A stretch of 33,486 nt of DNA from Akkermansia sp. (GTDB taxonomy: Bacteria; Verrucomicrobiota; Verrucomicrobiia; Verrucomicrobiales; Akkermansiaceae): assembly GCA_017546845.1 (NCBI GenBank), contig JAFYRS010000172.1:1-33486 (forward strand), written 5' to 3'. Every line of letters begins with the position of its first letter. The first letter of the stretch is position 1. The position numbers were made by a program, and so were the translations under genes. The notes beneath the pieces are model-generated. The model was not told where the DNA came from, made no database searches, and saw only the letters and a list, made by a program, of their open reading frames with translations. Below, piece after piece: positions 15,820 through 28,402 of this stretch.

Positions 15820-17532
15820 ATGAGTACTAAGTTCAGTTGGGAACTGCGCCCGACTGACGGGAGTGTGGATTTCGGTGAGGAACTGAACCAGCAGTTGCCG
15901 CTGCTCGTTCGTAAATTGCTGGCACAGAGAGGCATTTCCGGGAAAGAAAGGGCGCTAAGATTCCTGAAACCCAGGCTATCAGATTTAGGCGACCCTTTCG
16001 CGATGCGGGAGATGGATGCGGCCGTTGAGCGCATCTTCCGCGCGGCAGACAACGGCGAGCACGTTTGCATCTATGGCGATTATGATGTGGACGGCGTGAG
16101 TTCTGTAACCCTGCTGTACACGATTCTGAGGGCTTATGATATACGCACGGATTACTTCATCCCGGTGCGTACGAAGGAGGGCTATGGCCTGAGCGAGGAA
16201 GGTATGGCGCATGCCATTGAGCGTTGCGGCGGCAAGCCTGATGTGATTATTGCCGTGGATTGTGGCACTTCTTCTGTAGAGGAAGTGGCGTGGCTGCAGA
16301 CCCAGGGAATTGATGTGGTGATTCTGGACCACCACGAAGCGAGCACGCTGGGCCGTCCGCCCGCGGTGGCCGTGGTGAATGCCAAGCTGGAGGAGTCCAG
16401 CCCGTTTACCTATTTGTGCAGTGCCGGTGTGGTGTTCAAGCTGGCGCATGCAATGTTGAAGCAGCGCCGCCTGCCGCAGTTTGATTTGAAGCAGCACCTG
16501 GATGTGGTGGCCATTGCCACGGTGGCGGATATTGTGCCGCTGGTGGAGGAGAACCGCCTCTTGACGCGCCATGGCCTGCGGGTGATGGAAAACGGGGGAA
16601 ACATAGGCATACAGGCGCTTAACCGGGTGACCAATCTGAACCGACGTCCGAGCGCGAGTCATGTTTCGTTCCGTATTGGGCCGCGGTTGAATGCTGCGGG
16701 GCGTATGGATAATCCGATGGATGCGCTGAATCTGCTGATGACGCGGGATACCGCCGTGGCGCAGGACTTGGCGGAACGCCTGGAGGCGCACAACCGGGCC
16801 CGCCAGCAGGAGGAGGAGAAGATTCGCAACGAAGCCATGGAGATGCTCGCTAAAAACTTTTCTCCCGGCCGGGACAATGTGATTGTGCTGGGCTCCCGTA
16901 CCTGGCATCCGGGGGTGGTGGGTATTGTGGCTTCTTTGCTGATGCGCCGTTTCCATAAGCCTACCTTTGTGATTTCGCTGGATGAGAACGGCATCGGCAA
17001 GGGCAGCGGGCGTTCGATTCCCGGCGTTTCCCTGGTGCAGGCCATTCATGCCTGCGCCGATACGCTGATTTCCGGCGGTGGTCACGATATGGCGGCCGGG
17101 CTGGTGATTCATGAGGACATGATTGATGCATTCCGCGAGCGTTTTGATGCCTTTGTGCGCGAAACCGTGGACCCGGAACGGCTGAATCCGGTGCTGAACA
17201 TCGATGCAGAGGTGACCTTCCCGGAACTGACTCTGGATTTGCTGGATAGTTATGAGCTTTTAGAACCATTTGGTAATTCAAATCCTCAACCTGTTTTCAT
17301 GAGTCGCAATGTGATGCTGACGGATGCCCCGCGGCATTTGCAGGGCAATCACCTGCGTCTCGGTCTGCGCCAGGGCAGCTGCGAGTGCGATGCCATGTAT
17401 TTCAACGGAGGCAGCCGCAAGCTTCCGGACCCGCCCTGGGATATTGCCTATACGATTGACCGCAACGTATGGCGAGGGCGCACGACATTGTCTATTTCGA
17501 TTCAGGATATCCGCCCGGCTTCTGTGATATGA
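15820..17532 (+). CDS. recJ: Single-stranded-DNA-specific exonuclease RecJ
   Basis: RecJ degrades single-stranded DNA 5' to 3' in recombination and mismatch or base-excision repair. The 570-residue protein shows the DHH phosphoesterase set: YGDYDVDG at 85-92, AVDCGTSS near 146-152, and DHHE at 170-173. The DHHA1 part follows with RIGPRLNAAGRMD near 285 and SGGGHDMAAG near 420, then an OB-fold domain. Its stop overlaps the ATG of the membrane protease gene (ATGA), implying coupled translation. The start is set by the leaderless promoter. Confidence 0.95.
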   Translation: MSTKFSWELRPTDGSVDFGEELNQQLPLLVRKLLAQRGISGKERALRFLKPRLSDLGDPFAMREMDAAVERIFRAADNGEHVCIYGDYDVDGVSSVTLLYTILRAYDIRTDYFIPVRTKEGYGLSEEGMAHAIERCGGKPDVIIAVDCGTSSVEEVAWLQTQGIDVVILDHHEASTLGRPPAVAVVNAKLEESSPFTYLCSAGVVFKLAHAMLKQRRLPQFDLKQHLDVVAIATVADIVPLVEENRLLTRHGLRVMENGGNIGIQALNRVTNLNRRPSASHVSFRIGPRLNAAGRMDNPMDALNLLMTRDTAVAQDLAERLEAHNRARQQEEEKIRNEAMEMLAKNFSPGRDNVIVLGSRTWHPGVVGIVASLLMRRFHKPTFVISLDENGIGKGSGRSIPGVSLVQAIHACADTLISGGGHDMAAGLVIHEDMIDAFRERFDAFVRETVDPERLNPVLNIDAEVTFPELTLDLLDSYELLEPFGNSNPQPVFMSRNVMLTDAPRHLQGNHLRLGLRQGSCECDAMYFNGGSRKLPDPPWDIAYTIDRNVWRGRTTLSISIQDIRPASVI

Positions 17533-18458: not shown

Positions 18459-18478
18459 GTCAGTATAGGAGTTTTGCC

Positions 18479-18506
18479 TTGCATGCAGGGCGAATTGTGC
18501 CATAAT
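18479..18506 (+). promoter_or_regulatory. Promoter of the sufT-like gene
   Basis: TTGCAT (18479-18484), 16 bases, CATAAT (18501-18506), then 12 bases to the ATG at 18519. An in-frame TTG at 18474 lies upstream of the promoter and therefore cannot be the start of this transcript. Confidence 0.6.
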
Positions 18507-18518
18507 CTTGCGCGCGTC

Positions 18519-19058
18519 ATGTTGAATCAGGAAGTGATAACAGAGGCAGAAACCGCTGCCATTCAGATTCCCGCGGGTAATGCAGTGCTGCTCCCGGAGG
18601 GTTCTCGTATCTATGTTACCCAGATGCTGGGTAACTCTATTACCGCTGCTACGGATGTGGGCCTGGTGCGCATTTCCCGGGAGGAGGCCGCCCGCGCCGG
18701 CATTATTGCTGCTTCCCAGGCTGTGCAGGAGAGCGATGAGAACCTGACTCTGGAAGAACGAGTCTGGAAGGTTCTGGGGAATATTTATGACCCCGAAATC
18801 CCGGTTGATATTGTGAATCTCGGTCTTATTTACGGAGTGGAGCTGATTCCCCAGATGGAGGGTGGCACGCACGTAAGCGTGCAGATGACGCTGACGGCTC
18901 CCGGTTGCGGCATGGGCCCGCACCTGATGGCGGAGGCCGAGATGGGCATTGCCGCGCTGGAGGGTGTCAAGAGTGTCGATGTTGAGTTTGTGTGGGATCC
19001 GCCGTGGAATCAGGGAATGATGACGGAGGAGGCCCGCATGCAGCTTGGGCTTGAATAA
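18519..19058 (+). CDS. sufT: SufT-like iron-sulfur assembly protein (MIP18/DUF59 domain)
   Basis: A 179-residue protein with a small N-terminal domain (MLNQEVIT, then LPEGSRIYVTQMLG) typical of SufT, and a MIP18-family domain at about residues 79-170. Key motifs are DPEIPVDIVNLGLIY (91-105) and TAPGCGMG (127-134), with Cys130 the conserved reactive cysteine. SufT proteins help mature iron-sulfur clusters; here the gene stands apart from sufBCDSU genes. This fits an anaerobic organism using NrdG-type iron-sulfur enzymes, though no direct link is visible. It precedes the 19066 gene by seven bases. Confidence 0.88.
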   Translation: MLNQEVITEAETAAIQIPAGNAVLLPEGSRIYVTQMLGNSITAATDVGLVRISREEAARAGIIAASQAVQESDENLTLEERVWKVLGNIYDPEIPVDIVNLGLIYGVELIPQMEGGTHVSVQMTLTAPGCGMGPHLMAEAEMGIAALEGVKSVDVEFVWDPPWNQGMMTEEARMQLGLE

Positions 19059-19600: not shown

Positions 19601-21478
19601 TCAGCCGAGAAGTTCCTGAGGGGTGACCCCGGCTGTGCAGGGGTGGTCCTGGTCACATTCATTGCGGTAGCAGGGGTGGCAGGGGGTATGGTTGCAGACA
19701 ACGTGATGTCCGGCACCCAGCGGGGAATAGACGGCTGCCAGGCGGCTGGCCATGAGAACATGGCACGGACACCCGGCCAGTGCTGCCAACTGGGGAAGCA
19801 GACCATCCACTGCGTACAATCTGCATTGTGCGCCCAGCATCTGGGGCACCTCTTCCGGCTGCACAAGGCATGCGGCAATTCCCAGCTTCTCAGCCATTTC
19901 CTCCGCCTTTGTTCTGTCTGCCTCCAGCGCCAGGAGTTCTGGCTGCTCAGGGAGCAGCGCGAGCAGCTGTTCCCATTTATCCAGAGGCCAGGAGTCCGCA
20001 CTGCCCAAGGTTGAGAACGGGGCGATATACAAACCGGTATTCGTCAGATTTCCCTGGGTGGGGGCGGCGTAGTCCATCCGCTCTCCGCCGATATGTCTGT
20101 CTGCGATGTCCTGGTAGATTTCTGACTTGTGGCGGGGTGCCTGGCCAACAGGAGGCACAGTGCGGGTGCGGAATTTGCGGGCAAGCGGGCTGGCTCCCGG
20201 CCCGCTTATGTACATGGGCATCAGTTTGCCAAGGTTGTTGAATACCTTACGGTTATCGCTGAGCATGAACAGGTAGTCGTATGGACCGTCCTTGTATAAT
20301 TCATCGGCCTCCAGCTGTTCAATGGGGCTGCTTGCTTCATCCGTGGTAACGGTATATGTTATATATTCCTGAGTTTTCCAGAAGTTTTTCTGCTCCTGGG
20401 GGCAGAGAACTGTGAGCTGCATGTCGGGTCTGCATGCTTTGACCCGTCGCATCATGGGAATGACCAGCAGGGCTTCTTCAAATTCCTCTGGTACGCAGAT
20501 GATGATGCGGAAAGGAAGCTTTGCGTGCTGCTGAATGATGGCAATTTGCTCAGCTTCACTTTCGGGGGCAAAACGCTGCGTTGGTTTCCAGCGATGGTGC
20601 ATCCAGAATCCATCCAGAATGCTCTTGCGCTGGGTTTCTTCCAATGCCTGGTTGACTGCGTGGGTAAGGGTATATAAATCCGAGCATCCCTCAGGTATGG
20701 GGATTTCGTGTCCTAAATCAGCTTCCCAGCGTCCGAGGCCGATGGTGCGATTGCCAACCGCATAGAGTCTGGCGCGCCCTTTACTGCGCTTCTGGATGAG
20801 AGCAGGGAGCGGTGTTGTGCCGGTTACTTTACCAAAATAGGGAACAAAGAGTCCCTGCTGGGTAAACTGGTCACTGAGTACGCCGAGCATGCCCCCTTCG
20901 CTCACGAGTCTGAATACTTCCTTGAGTCCCTTTTTGTTACTGAACATCTCGCATCCATAGCGGGTGCGACCCTCCAGCACAATTTGTTCAAGCGCAGGAT
21001 TGTCCAGCCGGCGGTACATGGAGCCAAAGCGTTTGACTTTGGGGAAATACGGGCGGATGCGAGCCAGAATTTCCCAGTTTCCGGCATGAGGAACGCAACC
21101 GATGACGCTGTTCCCATCAGATGCTTTCTCTTCAAATGAATCAGCCCCGACAACGGTGACGGCCCGCTTCAATTCCGCATCGGTAAGCATGCCTGTTTTG
21201 AACGTGCAGGCCATGTTCATACATGTGCGGACAATGTTTTCCCGCACCATGCTGCGGAGCTGTGGGCCGCGCAGCATGGGATTTTCAACAATACGCAGAT
21301 TGCGTGCCACAATCCGGCGGCGGGAGGGCATGATTGCCCAGACCAGATACCCCAGGATGCGTCCGAATAGTGCAACAACGCGTATGCTTACAAGCCCGAG
21401 CAGGGCACTGAAGCACCGGTACAGGACGACGATGATTCGGTCGCCTGCCGTAATCCGTCTGTCACGTTTCGAACTCAT
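19601..21478 (-). CDS. Fusion of a lipid A-type acyltransferase (LpxL/HtrB family) with a GT9 heptosyltransferase-like domain
   Basis: A 625-residue two-domain protein. Residues 1-300 match the LpxL/HtrB family that adds secondary acyl chains to lipid A: an N-terminal hydrophobic segment, HAGNWE at 131-136 (the HX4D/E catalytic pair, His131 and Glu136), SDQ near 202 and WMHHRWK at 292-298. Residues 322-625 resemble GT9 ADP-heptose transferases: an initial beta strand RIIICVP, PFSTLGSADSWPLDKW near 487-502, and a final cysteine-rich tail (C595, C600, C603, C608, C614). The usual catalytic GD at the GT9 start appears as EE, so transferase activity is doubtful. Last gene of the 22758-to-19601 operon. 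Confidence 0.85.
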   Translation of the reverse strand: MSSKRDRRITAGDRIIVVLYRCFSALLGLVSIRVVALFGRILGYLVWAIMPSRRRIVARNLRIVENPMLRGPQLRSMVRENIVRTCMNMACTFKTGMLTDAELKRAVTVVGADSFEEKASDGNSVIGCVPHAGNWEILARIRPYFPKVKRFGSMYRRLDNPALEQIVLEGRTRYGCEMFSNKKGLKEVFRLVSEGGMLGVLSDQFTQQGLFVPYFGKVTGTTPLPALIQKRSKGRARLYAVGNRTIGLGRWEADLGHEIPIPEGCSDLYTLTHAVNQALEETQRKSILDGFWMHHRWKPTQRFAPESEAEQIAIIQQHAKLPFRIIICVPEEFEEALLVIPMMRRVKACRPDMQLTVLCPQEQKNFWKTQEYITYTVTTDEASSPIEQLEADELYKDGPYDYLFMLSDNRKVFNNLGKLMPMYISGPGASPLARKFRTRTVPPVGQAPRHKSEIYQDIADRHIGGERMDYAAPTQGNLTNTGLYIAPFSTLGSADSWPLDKWEQLLALLPEQPELLALEADRTKAEEMAEKLGIAACLVQPEEVPQMLGAQCRLYAVDGLLPQLAALAGCPCHVLMASRLAAVYSPLGAGHHVVCNHTPCHPCYRNECDQDHPCTAGVTPQELLG

Positions 21479-23579: not shown

Positions 23580-24266
23580 TCAGATTTTCTTGAATGCCTT
23601 GGTGCCCCATTCGGTGCAGCTCCAGGTGGTGCCGTCTTCGCTGGTGAAGATGCAGACACCGCCGGTGGCTACTTTGATGTCGTGTTCGGCACAGAAGCCT
23701 GCGTAATCGCCCGTGATGACCGGCGCAAAGCGGATGGTGCCGTTGGAGGAGACGCAGAGCATGATTTCGCCGTCCTTGACCTCTGCGGCGAGGCTCATCC
23801 AGTTGTCTCGTATCTGCTGTACGTCCACTTTCCAGCCGGTGGGGACAGTGGCATCCGCGTTCCATTTGTCAATGATGGCGGCGCCTTTAGCCTCAATTTC
23901 GCCGGGAGAGAGGGTGGAGGGGTCAATGCCTTCGGCCTTGGCTGCTTCGGCACCGAGGCGGGCCATGACCTGTTCCTCCGTCTTGTTTTCATCGGGGCCG
24001 TAGTCGACTTCGATGAAGCGGTGGTCGGGCTCGACCGGGCAGGTGCAGCCGGCGGCTTCGGCTGCGAGGGCTGCAGTGCCCAGGGTGCGCTTGAGCGGGG
24101 CGGCCAGAATGCGGGTGGGCACCAGACCGAGCTTCTTGAGGTACAGGCCTACGCCTTTGCCGCGCTCTTCTTCTACGAGTTCCAGGTCGGTGTGGCAACC
24201 TACACGGGTGGGAGTTTCGCCTTTGGCAAAGGTGTTGCCGTGGCGGGCAATGATGAGTGTTTTCAT
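23580..24266 (-). CDS. Histidine phosphatase superfamily protein (variant with Asn at the second histidine site)
   Basis: A 228-residue phosphoglycerate-mutase-like protein. The N-terminal ARHGNTF (Arg8, His9, Gly10) carries the phospho-acceptor histidine, followed by a TR pair and LKRTLGTA near residue 58. At the place of the second catalytic histidine (usually SHGG-IR) it reads SSNGTIRF, with Asn175. Such SNG variants exist among histidine phosphatases, so it may still act, with altered mechanism or specificity. Substrate unknown. It has a consensus promoter and leads the unit phosphatase-mscL-HU. Confidence 0.82.
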   Translation of the reverse strand: MKTLIIARHGNTFAKGETPTRVGCHTDLELVEEERGKGVGLYLKKLGLVPTRILAAPLKRTLGTAALAAEAAGCTCPVEPDHRFIEVDYGPDENKTEEQVMARLGAEAAKAEGIDPSTLSPGEIEAKGAAIIDKWNADATVPTGWKVDVQQIRDNWMSLAAEVKDGEIMLCVSSNGTIRFAPVITGDYAGFCAEHDIKVATGGVCIFTSEDGTTWSCTEWGTKAFKKI

Positions 24267-25370: not shown

Positions 25371-26552
25371 TTAGAGCTTCTTAAATCCACTTATGGAGCT
25401 GGATGGTTTGGTCGTCTTTTTGGATTTTTTTGAGGAAACCACTTTCCAGATGGGGGAATCTTCTGCGAAATCCGGACCTTGTTCTCCATAATGCTTGCTG
25501 CTGTATTCTTTAAATGATGGGTGGTGGCTCGGTGATGCTTCGCTGGTGCGGAACAGTTGCAAGGGGGCATTGTTGCCGGGAGTCACTTCTTGCGTGAGCA
25601 GGTAAAAGAGTGTGCTTCCTCCGTTGTTACCAATGATGATTTCTATTGGGTAGACTTCACCTTCTTTTACCTTGATGGGATGCCCGCCAGTGATTCCCGA
25701 AAATGCATCGTTGCAGAACGGTGTGCTGCGGAGCTTTCTGACGACGTATCCTTTTTTATCCGGATGTATGCCTTCCACTACCTCTTTCTGGTATTGCTTG
25801 GTGTAGTACCAGTCGCATCCTTTATCCTTAATCCCGTTGCCTTTGTATAGTTCTGGCTTGAAGAAACCTGTTTCCAGTACCAGGTTATCATTAAAGCGGA
25901 CTGCTATGGCATCATCTGCTGCTCCGTAAAATCGGAAAGTCATGCTTTTCGGGGCTGTTACTTTGCCTCGGAATACCCCGAACCAGGAAATATGGTCATC
26001 GTAGGCCTTTGCTTTGCCTTTTGCAGGCTTGTTTCCTCCGGAAGATGCCTCATCGTCAGGAAGGAAGTCTGATTCGGGGGCTTTCAGGGTGTTACTGGCA
26101 GGTGCTCCATCTAATTCTGCTGCCAGGGATTTGAATGTGCAGGGCGCCAGGTATATATGCGGTGTGGCAACGGTGTATGGATATTTGTAGTAGCGTTTCA
26201 GGATGCTGTATTTGCCGTTCATCAATTCTTTGAGTGTATAGGCAAACTGACCGTGCACATCTGGGCTGTTAGTCGGATTTTTCGCACCCGTGCTACGTGT
26301 TTTAATGGCTGATTTGAGATCTCTTCTGGCGGGCCCTGTTTTGCCAGTGTTATAGATTCCGGAATAGGTGAAAAACTCGCCTTTCGGATTGCGGTTGTAG
26401 TCATACAAAACACCTGTGAGCATGTCATCAGGGACTTCTGCCGGTTTCTTGTCGCTGGTCCACACATAACACATGCCCCGTGGCTCCCATTCTGCAAAGG
26501 CAGAGAGGGAGAGAACGGCGGTTGCTGTCAAGGTAATGAGTTGGTGTTTCAT
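25371..26552 (-). CDS. Secreted PA14-like domain protein, translationally coupled to parE
   Basis: A 393-residue exported protein with a signal peptide (MKHQL..., ending AFAEWE) and the same domain plan as the gene at 24349: CYVWTSDK...[40 protein letters not shown] near residue 195, [11 protein letters not shown]...[11 protein letters not shown], then [14 protein letters not shown]. It has extra residues before the PA14-like part. Its start codon overlaps the parE stop by four bases (ATGA), an unexpected partnership between a secreted binding protein and a topoisomerase. The two paralogs probably arose by duplication. Function unknown. Confidence 0.82.
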
Positions 26553-28402
26553 GCTAAATCTTCTTCGATTCGGAGGTTATCAACGATGTACTGGCGGCGG
26601 TCATCGGTGTTGTCCCCCATGTAGAAGCGGAGGATTTCCTTGAGGTTGTGCGCGTTTTCGAGCGTTACTTCCTCCAGGCGTATATCTTCACCGATGAAGG
26701 CCTTGAATTCAGAGGGGGAGATTTCACCCAGACCCTTGAATCGGGTGATTTCCGGGTTGCGCCCCAGCTGTTTCACGGCGCGGTCGCGCTCGGCTTCAGA
26801 GTAGCAATAAAGCGTTTTCTGCTTGTTGCGCACGCGGAAGAGCGGGGTCTGGAGAATGAAGAGGTGACCCTCGCGGATGAGGTCGGGGAAGTACTGGATA
26901 AAGAACGTGAGCAGCAGCAGGCGGATGTGCATGCCGTCCACATCCGCATCAGTCGCGATGATGACCTTGTTGTAGCGCAAATCCTCCATGCTGCGGTCGA
27001 TGTTGAGCGCCAGGTGCAGGAAGTCCAGCTCTTCGTTGCGCTTTTCCTCGAAGAGGGCGGCGCGGTTCATGCCAAAACTGTTTGCGGGCTTGCCGCGCAG
27101 GGAGAAGACGGCCTGCGTCTCGGCATCGCGGGCGGTGGTGATGGAGCCGGAGGCGGAGTCACCCTCGGTGATGAAGAGCATGGTCTCCTTGGCGCGCTTG
27201 TGCTTCGTGTCGTAGTGCACGCGGCAGTCGCGCAGCTTGCGGGTGTGAATCTTGGCTTTCTTGGCGCGTTCCTTGGCCACCTTGCCGGTAACACCTGCCA
27301 CTTCCTTGCGGGTCTTTTCGCTTTCCTTGATTTTCTCCTCCATCGCCTCGCCGATTTCGGGGTGGCGGTGCAGGTAGTTATCCAGCTCACGGGCAAGGAA
27401 GTTGAGCACGAAGGTGCGGATGGTTTCCTTGCCGGGGCCCATGGTGTTGCTGCCCAGTTTGGTCTTGGTCTGGGATTCGAACACGGGTTCGATGACCTTG
27501 ATGCTGATGGCGGCCTGGATGCCGTTGCGGATGTCGGAGCCTTCGTAGCTCTTTTTGAAGTAGCCCTGCAGCGTCTTGACGATAGCCTCGCGGAAGGCGG
27601 CCTGGTGCGTGCCGCCCATGGTGGTGTGCTGGCCGTTCACGAAGGAGTAGTACTCCTCGCCGTAGTCATCACCGTGGGTGATGGCAATCTCAATGTCGCT
27701 GCCGGAAATGTGGATGGGCGCGTAGAGCGGTTCCTCCTTCATCTCTTCCTTGAGCAGATCCAGCAGGCCGTTTTTCGAGGAAATGTTGCGGCCATTCAGG
27801 TTGATGGTGAGCCCGGTGTTCAGGTAGCAGTAGTAGCGGCACATGCGCTCTACAAAGCTGAGGTTGTAGGCGGCATCGGCCGCAAAGATGCTGCGATCCA
27901 CCATGAACGCCACGCGCGTGCCATCCGGCTGGTCGGTTGCTTCGGTGACATCGCTGCCTTCTATCATTTCGCCTGCCTGGAACAGGATGCGGCGGGTCTG
28001 CCCCTCACGGTAGGCCTGAATCTCAAACGTTTCGGAAAGCGCATTCACCGCTTTGATACCCACGCCATTCAAACCAACGGATTTCTTGAAGGCTTCGCCA
28101 TCGTACTTGCCGCCGGTGTTGATTTTAGCGGCGCATTCGTAGAGCTTGCCCAGCGGAATACCGCGTCCGAAGTCGCGGATTTCGCTGCGGCCTTCCTTGT
28201 CTATGCTCACGAGTATTTTTTTGCCGATACCCATCACGAACTCGTCAATCGAGTTGTCGATGACTTCCTTGAGCAGTACGTACAGACCATCGTCCGGCAT
28301 GGTGCCGTCGCCCAGCTTGCCTATGTACATACCCGGGCGCAAGCGGATGTGCTCGCGCCAGTCCAGTGTTTGAATGTCGTCTTCTGTGTATTCGGCTTCC
28401 AT
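26549..28402 (-). CDS. parE: Type IIA topoisomerase subunit B (ParE-like)
   Basis: A 617-residue ATPase subunit of topoisomerase IV or a gyrase-like enzyme. In order: GHKL ATPase (RPGMYIG at about 23-29, [10 protein letters not shown] with the Mg-binding asparagine, GRGIPLG and [11 protein letters not shown]), transducer domain, then TOPRIM (EGDSASGS and [10 protein letters not shown]) and the end RRQYIVDN. At 617 residues it matches short ParE-type proteins without the E. coli GyrB insertion. The partner subunit A is not in the window. It has its own promoter and leads into two PA14-like genes. GyrB versus ParE cannot be settled without the partner. Confidence 0.92.

What the first reader, a model, noticed from the sequence alone, without database searches (positions are those of the whole stretch)
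19601..21478. Lipid A acyltransferase fused to a GT9 domain lacking the usual catalytic Asp
An LpxL/HtrB-like domain with intact His131/Glu136 is fused to a heptosyltransferase-like domain whose GD start motif reads EE. Coupling acylation and core glycosylation in one protein would be unusual. If the GT9 part is inactive, it may bind sugar or position the substrate.
Basis: partly seen in the sequence, partly recalled or inferred. Interest (0 to 1): 0.6.

Follow-up and report, generated by a model that had tools for sequence, protein, structure and literature searches.

The report
Acyltransferase with decayed heptosyltransferase half
In the gut bacterium Akkermansia, the only late lipid A acyltransferase is one half of an old two-enzyme fusion whose sugar-transferring half has lost its catalytic and donor-binding motifs but is still kept, a natural series showing how a bifunctional endotoxin-building enzyme may turn into a single-function one.

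Summary
Window 19601-21478 (-) is one 625-aa ORF: an LpxL-type acyltransferase with intact catalytic residues, then a complete GT-B fold most like E. coli WaaC/WaaF (AlphaFold pLDDT 91, pTM 0.90). It is no artefact: the fusion runs through Akkermansia and many other Verrucomicrobiae families. In sister families the second half is a canonical heptosyltransferase II (TIGR02195 above its equivalog cut-off). In Akkermansia its motifs are gone (Asp to Glu in 60/64 rows; donor-site Lys and His in 0/52), yet it is under purifying selection. The genus also has a separate, intact GT9 that tracks the ADP-heptose genes (18/19 against 1/18 genomes); the fused half is present with or without them. Two lineages deleted the donor-binding lobe cleanly but kept the acceptor lobe. 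An Arg-x-Asp pair on that lobe is invariant in all 95 fused proteins aligned and rare in separate heptosyltransferases. Best reading: an ancestral LpxL-HepII bifunctional enzyme whose HepII half became a docking or structural module, which fits the single heptose published for A. muciniphila lipooligosaccharide. No held paper describing it was found. New variant of known kinds; function untested.

The parts
19601..21478 (-). Whole fused gene, 625 aa
   Evidence: ORF; full-length relatives; model pLDDT 91.1, pTM 0.90
20570..21478 (-). LpxL-type acyltransferase half, residues 1-303
   Evidence: PF03279 104.6 bits; LpxM 5kn7 Z 26.1
21071..21088 (-). HAGNWE, catalytic dyad His131/Glu136
   Evidence: H and E in 64/64 Akkermansia rows
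20069..20515 (-). GT-B N-lobe (acceptor lobe), residues 322-470
   Evidence: WaaC/WaaF fold match; kept even where the C-lobe is lost
20474..20479 (-). Glu334-Glu335 in place of the GT9 Gly-Asp
   Evidence: Residue 335 is E in 60/64 Akkermansia rows, D in 21/23 sister-group rows
20423..20431 (-). Arg350-Pro-Asp352, signature of fused proteins, candidate docking face
   Evidence: R and D in 95/95 fused rows, 1/22 and 3/21 in separate heptosyltransferase II
19604..20068 (-). GT-B C-lobe (donor lobe), residues 471-625
   Evidence: Fold match; absent in seven of 37 Akkermansia genomes and in G057
19994..19996 (-). Asp495 in place of the donor-site Lys of KRWP
   Evidence: K in 0/52 Akkermansia rows, 20/23 sister-group rows
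19790..19807 (-). DGLLPQ (558-563) in place of DTGTMH; Asp558 kept
   Evidence: D558 52/52, H563 0/52 in Akkermansia
19637..19681 (-). Four-Cys motif C600, C603, C608, C614, probable metal finger
   Evidence: Kept in 50/52 full-length Akkermansia rows; TibC has a four-Cys iron finger (PMC4358343)

Best explanation
The protein descends from a bifunctional enzyme of class Verrucomicrobiae in which an LpxL-type secondary acyltransferase was fused to LPS heptosyltransferase II (WaaF type). In Akkermansia the LpxL half still acylates Kdo-lipid A, probably as the genus's only late acyltransferase. The heptosyltransferase half no longer transfers ADP-heptose and is kept as a folded module docked on the LpxL half through the back face of its acceptor lobe (Arg350/Asp352). 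There it stabilises the enzyme and may still help seat the Kdo/inner-core part of the substrate. Shown by computation: the families of both halves, loss of catalytic and donor-site motifs, purifying selection, independence from the ADP-heptose genes, clean loss of the donor lobe in two lineages. Inferred: LpxL activity, loss of heptosyl transfer, the docking role, substrate seating.
For: Sister fused halves score 165-210 bits for TIGR02195 heptosyltransferase II, cut-off 134.6. Motif losses in Akkermansia. dN/dS about 0.07-0.35 in the GT lobes. A separate intact GT9 tracks gmhA/hldE (18/19 against 1/18) while the fused gene does not (18/19 against 17/18). A. muciniphila core: three Kdo, one heptose (PMC13135019, PMC12527988). 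Donor lobe deleted without remnant, acceptor lobe kept, in two lineages; the short form is predicted well packed, pTM 0.89. R350/D352 in 95/95 fused rows and rare in separate enzymes; back-face loops more conserved than cleft loops in Akkermansia, the reverse in separate enzymes. One LpxL-family gene in nearly every Akkermansia genome with a match.
Against: The Asp to Glu change is conservative and Glu is nearly fixed. Donor-site positions in Akkermansia, though altered, are more conserved than the rest of the C-lobe (0.64 against 0.43), so a new ligand is possible. The interface was not measured on coordinates. No activity is shown for either half.
Confidence: 0.62

Rival explanations
1. Repurposed pocket: the Akkermansia GT half has a new ligand (another nucleotide sugar, a nucleotide or an LPS intermediate), with Glu335 and Asp558 in the site, and either transfers another sugar or regulates acylation.
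For: The altered donor-site residues are themselves conserved in Akkermansia (G559 52/52, P562 50/52; 0.64 against 0.43 for the rest of the lobe); Glu335 60/64.
Against: Lys, Thr-Gly and His of the donor site are all lost; the donor lobe is dispensable in one Akkermansia clade and in G057; the strongest shared conservation is on the back face.
Confidence: 0.2
2. Still a heptosyltransferase: Glu335 serves as the base and the Akkermansia half adds the second heptose or the only one.
For: Conservative Asp to Glu; A. muciniphila core does contain one heptose.
Against: The gene is as common in genomes without gmhA/hldE as in those with them; a separate GT9 with all motifs intact is present where heptose genes are; donor-site Lys and His absent in 52/52.
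Confidence: 0.05
3. Passive vestige: the GT half does nothing and is on its way out.
For: It evolves faster than the LpxL half in Akkermansia, the reverse of sisters; donor lobe lost twice; in one Akkermansia genome (G080) an extra A in the linker breaks the frame after the LpxL half.
Against: dN/dS far below 1 in both lobes; invariant N-lobe residues across the genus; N-lobe kept even in shortened proteins, which are predicted well folded.
Confidence: 0.13

Closest known systems
LpxL/HtrB and LpxM secondary lipid A acyltransferases (PF03279; LpxM structure 5kn7)
   Same: Fold (Z 26.1), H-x4-E dyad and the conserved Arg and Asp
   Different: About 320 extra residues forming a GT-B half; NCBIfam LpxL/LpxM models match below their cut-offs
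LPS heptosyltransferase II (WaaF/RfaF, TIGR02195, GT9; structure 1psw)
   Same: Fold (Z 18.0), profile match E 7e-31; sister fused halves pass the equivalog cut-off
   Different: Catalytic Asp, donor-site Lys, Thr-Gly and His lost; covalently joined to LpxL
LPS heptosyltransferase I (WaaC, TIGR02193; 2h1h)
   Same: Fold match Z 18.3; Akkermansia's separate GT9 is closest to this family
   Different: The fused half descends from the HepII type, and the separate GT9 scores below the family cut-off
PnsB1 of plant NDH (7wff, 7f9o) and TibC (4rap)
   Same: GT9-like folds in the fold search, Z 12-13.6; PnsB1 is a GT9-like fold built into another complex, TibC has a four-Cys metal finger
   Different: Neither is fused to an acyltransferase; TibC is an active protein heptosyltransferase

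Membership tests
Lip_A_acyltrans (PF03279), LpxL-like | Pfam score above the curated cut-off | tested here: met
   104.6 bits against 22.3
Lip_A_acyltrans (PF03279), LpxL-like | Catalytic H-x4-E dyad plus conserved Arg and Asp | tested here: met
   H131, E136, R171, D203; E. coli counterparts in PMC6286764
Lip_A_acyltrans (PF03279), LpxL-like | Acyl transfer to Kdo-lipid A | not testable with these tools
   Needs an enzyme assay or complementation
LpxL/LpxP equivalog or subfamily models (TIGR02207 and others) | Score above the model's own cut-off | tested here: not met
   Best 88.4 bits against 297.8 for TIGR02207
LPS heptosyltransferase II (TIGR02195, GT9) | GT-B fold of GT9 type | tested here: met
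   WaaC/WaaF Z 18 over residues 323-625
LPS heptosyltransferase II (TIGR02195, GT9) | Model score above the equivalog cut-off | tested here: not met
   No match for the window protein; A. muciniphila-type L080 33 bits against 134.6; sister fusions 165-210 bits
LPS heptosyltransferase II (TIGR02195, GT9) | Catalytic Asp of the GD motif, donor-site Lys and His | tested here: not met
   E335, D495, Q563 in the window protein; tallies
LPS heptosyltransferase II (TIGR02195, GT9) | Heptosyl transfer from ADP-heptose | not testable with these tools
   Only indirect: the gene is present without gmhA/hldE
Verrucomicrobiae LpxL-HepII fusion (described here) | Both halves in one frame, same order | tested here: met
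Verrucomicrobiae LpxL-HepII fusion (described here) | R350/D352 signature of fused proteins | tested here: met
   95/95 fused rows

The most novel reading that the evidence does not exclude
The Akkermansia GT half is a ligand-binding regulatory module: it senses an inner-core or nucleotide-sugar signal through the rebuilt pocket (E335, D558, G559, P562) and controls how far the genus's single LpxL enzyme acylates lipid A, which could bear on the tetra- to hexa-acylation reported for A. muciniphila.
Probability: 0.1. Interest if true: 0.8.

Novelty: new variant of a known kind. Interest (0 to 1): 0.52.

Why it matters
Lipid A acylation shapes how strongly Akkermansia LPS stimulates TLR4, and its genetics is stated to be open: PMC12527988 notes a single divergent acyltransferase and no lpxM, although hexa-acyl lipid A was reported for another strain. 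The fusion is the likely enzyme and carries a second half not mentioned there. The class offers a natural series: unfused neighbours, intact fusion, fusion with dead motifs, fusion with a lobe deleted. That makes the change of a glycosyltransferase into a docking domain testable. It predicts a second heptose in relatives with the intact fusion, one in A. muciniphila, and none in the window's clade.

Tried and rejected
Assembly artefact: rejected, the gene matches in 57/59 relatives. Wrong fold: rejected. Remnant of the donor lobe downstream of the shortened genes: none, best tblastn E 0.07. The C-terminal extension of LpxL in L188-L190 as a shrunken N-lobe: no GT9 signal even with filters off. 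LPS operon around the gene in this window: not seen; neighbours with a Pfam match are RecJ, an FeS-assembly protein, a histidine phosphatase and a GyrB-type protein. Chlamydial extended LpxL (PRK05906, 454 aa) as the same kind of extension: it matches only inside the LpxL part. Literature: no held paper combines Verrucomicrobia, lipid A, heptosyltransferase and acyltransferase; no useful transposon study of Akkermansia lipid A genes and no paper on PnsB1 as an inactive GT.

Full report
What is there. The ORF at 19601-21478 on the minus strand encodes 625 aa. Pfam finds Lip_A_acyltrans over residues 6-298 at 104.6 bits and nothing else. NCBIfam finds LpxL/LpxM-type acyltransferase models, all below their cut-offs. 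An AlphaFold model on 53 relatives has mean pLDDT 91.1 and pTM 0.90 over both halves. The first half matches LpxM 5kn7 at Z 26.1; residues 323-625 match WaaC 2h1h at Z 18.3 and WaaF 1psw at Z 18.0. The family profile hits WaaF at E 7e-31.

Who has it. The nearest named loci are Akkermansia, many of them gut MAGs from ruminants, horse and rabbit. Of 59 relatives, 57 have a match, mostly over the full length. The fusion is present in Akkermansia, in other families of the order, and more widely in the class. In distant members L184 and L185 the two genes lie side by side in one frame with a stop codon between them; outside the class the GT9 hits are separate proteins. So the fusion is old and not an artefact.

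What the second half was. In sister families it is a canonical GT9: PF01075 at E 1e-30 to 4e-43 in most. In the three sister fusions scanned, TIGR02195 heptosyltransferase II scores 165-210 bits against an equivalog cut-off of 134.6. They carry SPNWLGD or SPNPLGD, AKRWP and NDTGTMH.

What happened in Akkermansia. Glu replaces the catalytic Asp in 60 of 64 rows. The donor-site Lys and the His are kept in 0 of 52 rows, while Asp558 is kept in 52/52 and the four Cys in 50/52. In the GT9-like enzyme TibC, Ala at the candidate base Asp-110 or at Lys-230 abolishes or largely diminishes activity, and the four-Cys iron finger is needed for structural integrity (PMC4358343). The equation of these residues with positions here rests on alignment and fold, not on coordinates. 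The half still evolves under purifying selection (dN/dS about 0.07-0.35 where dS could be estimated). It is less conserved than the LpxL half, the reverse of the sisters.

Why it is probably not a heptosyltransferase now. Among 37 Akkermansia genomes, strong gmhA and hldE matches occur together in 19. A separate GT9 with intact motifs, closest to heptosyltransferase I though below its cut-off, occurs in 18 of those 19 and in 1 of the other 18. The fused gene occurs in 18/19 and 17/18. The window's own genome (82% complete) has no strong gmhA or hldE match and no Pfam GT9. Seven genomes at 95-99% completeness and at most 5% contamination show the same absence (G002, G011, G019, G023, G025, G026, G031). 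Related genomes are not independent, so the p value of 2e-8 is a guide only. Published A. muciniphila core oligosaccharide holds three Kdo and one heptose (PMC13135019, PMC12527988), as expected if a HepI works and HepII does not.

Outside Akkermansia. G057, with no strong gmhA or hldE and no GT9 match, has only the N-lobe left. G046, with gmhA absent and hldE weak, has partly degenerate motifs. G051 keeps one intact and one degenerate fused-type gene although heptose genes are present. These few cases are suggestive only.

What is still used. One Akkermansia clade (seven of the 37 genomes) and, separately, G057 lack the whole donor lobe with no trace downstream, but keep the acceptor lobe. 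The shortened protein is predicted equally well (pLDDT 91.3, pTM 0.89). Arg350 and Asp352 are present in 95/95 fused rows and in 1/22 and 3/21 separate heptosyltransferase II rows. They sit in the loop after the first helix of the lobe, which in a Rossmann fold lies opposite the ligand cleft (general knowledge). Back-face loops are more conserved than cleft loops in Akkermansia, the opposite of separate enzymes. I read this as a docking face for the LpxL half. E. coli LpxL is about 6000-fold less active without Kdo (PMC6286764), and the N domain of GT-B enzymes, HepI included, binds the acceptor (PMC8124905), so help in substrate seating is possible but unproven.

Doubts. The altered donor-site positions remain more conserved than the rest of the C-lobe (0.64 against 0.43), so a new ligand is not excluded. 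The tree is a quick search with many open forks. The split into cleft and back loops was chosen by me from the model's secondary structure.

Link to literature. PMC12527988 names one divergent acyltransferase (23.7% identity to LpxL) and no lpxM in A. muciniphila HW07. This is probably the fusion, since nearly every Akkermansia genome has one LpxL-family gene, but the locus tag could not be matched to a sequence. The GT half is not mentioned in the passages read.

Noticed in passing
L191:3496-3650 (G080, single-contig Akkermansia genome): A run of eight A in the linker, where relatives L028, L074 and L076 have seven, breaks the frame between the LpxL half and the GT half. It may be a sequencing error, a fission or a slippage site.
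   Followed up: partly
L158:1828-4317 and L159:431-2926 (G020 and G033): Akkermansia proteins of about 830 aa with GT9-like regions, in L158 two in one protein.
   Followed up: no
L188, L189, L190 (class-level relatives): LpxL-type proteins with a C-terminal extension of roughly 100-130 aa that shows no GT9 signal; in the quick tree they group next to Akkermansia.
   Followed up: partly
Akkermansia genomes: ADP-heptose genes and a separate GT9 are present in about half of the species and missing together in the rest, so heptose may have been lost from the core in several clades, the window's included.
   Followed up: partly
L116:3717-4358 (G012): A second, divergent piece of the GT C-lobe in an open frame of 214 aa at a contig end; possibly contamination from another Akkermansia species.
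   Followed up: no
window 15820-17532, 18474-19058, 23580-24266, 26549-28402: Neighbouring genes with a Pfam match are RecJ, an FeS-assembly protein (PF01883), a histidine phosphatase and a GyrB-type protein; no LPS gene was seen among those scanned.
   Followed up: yes
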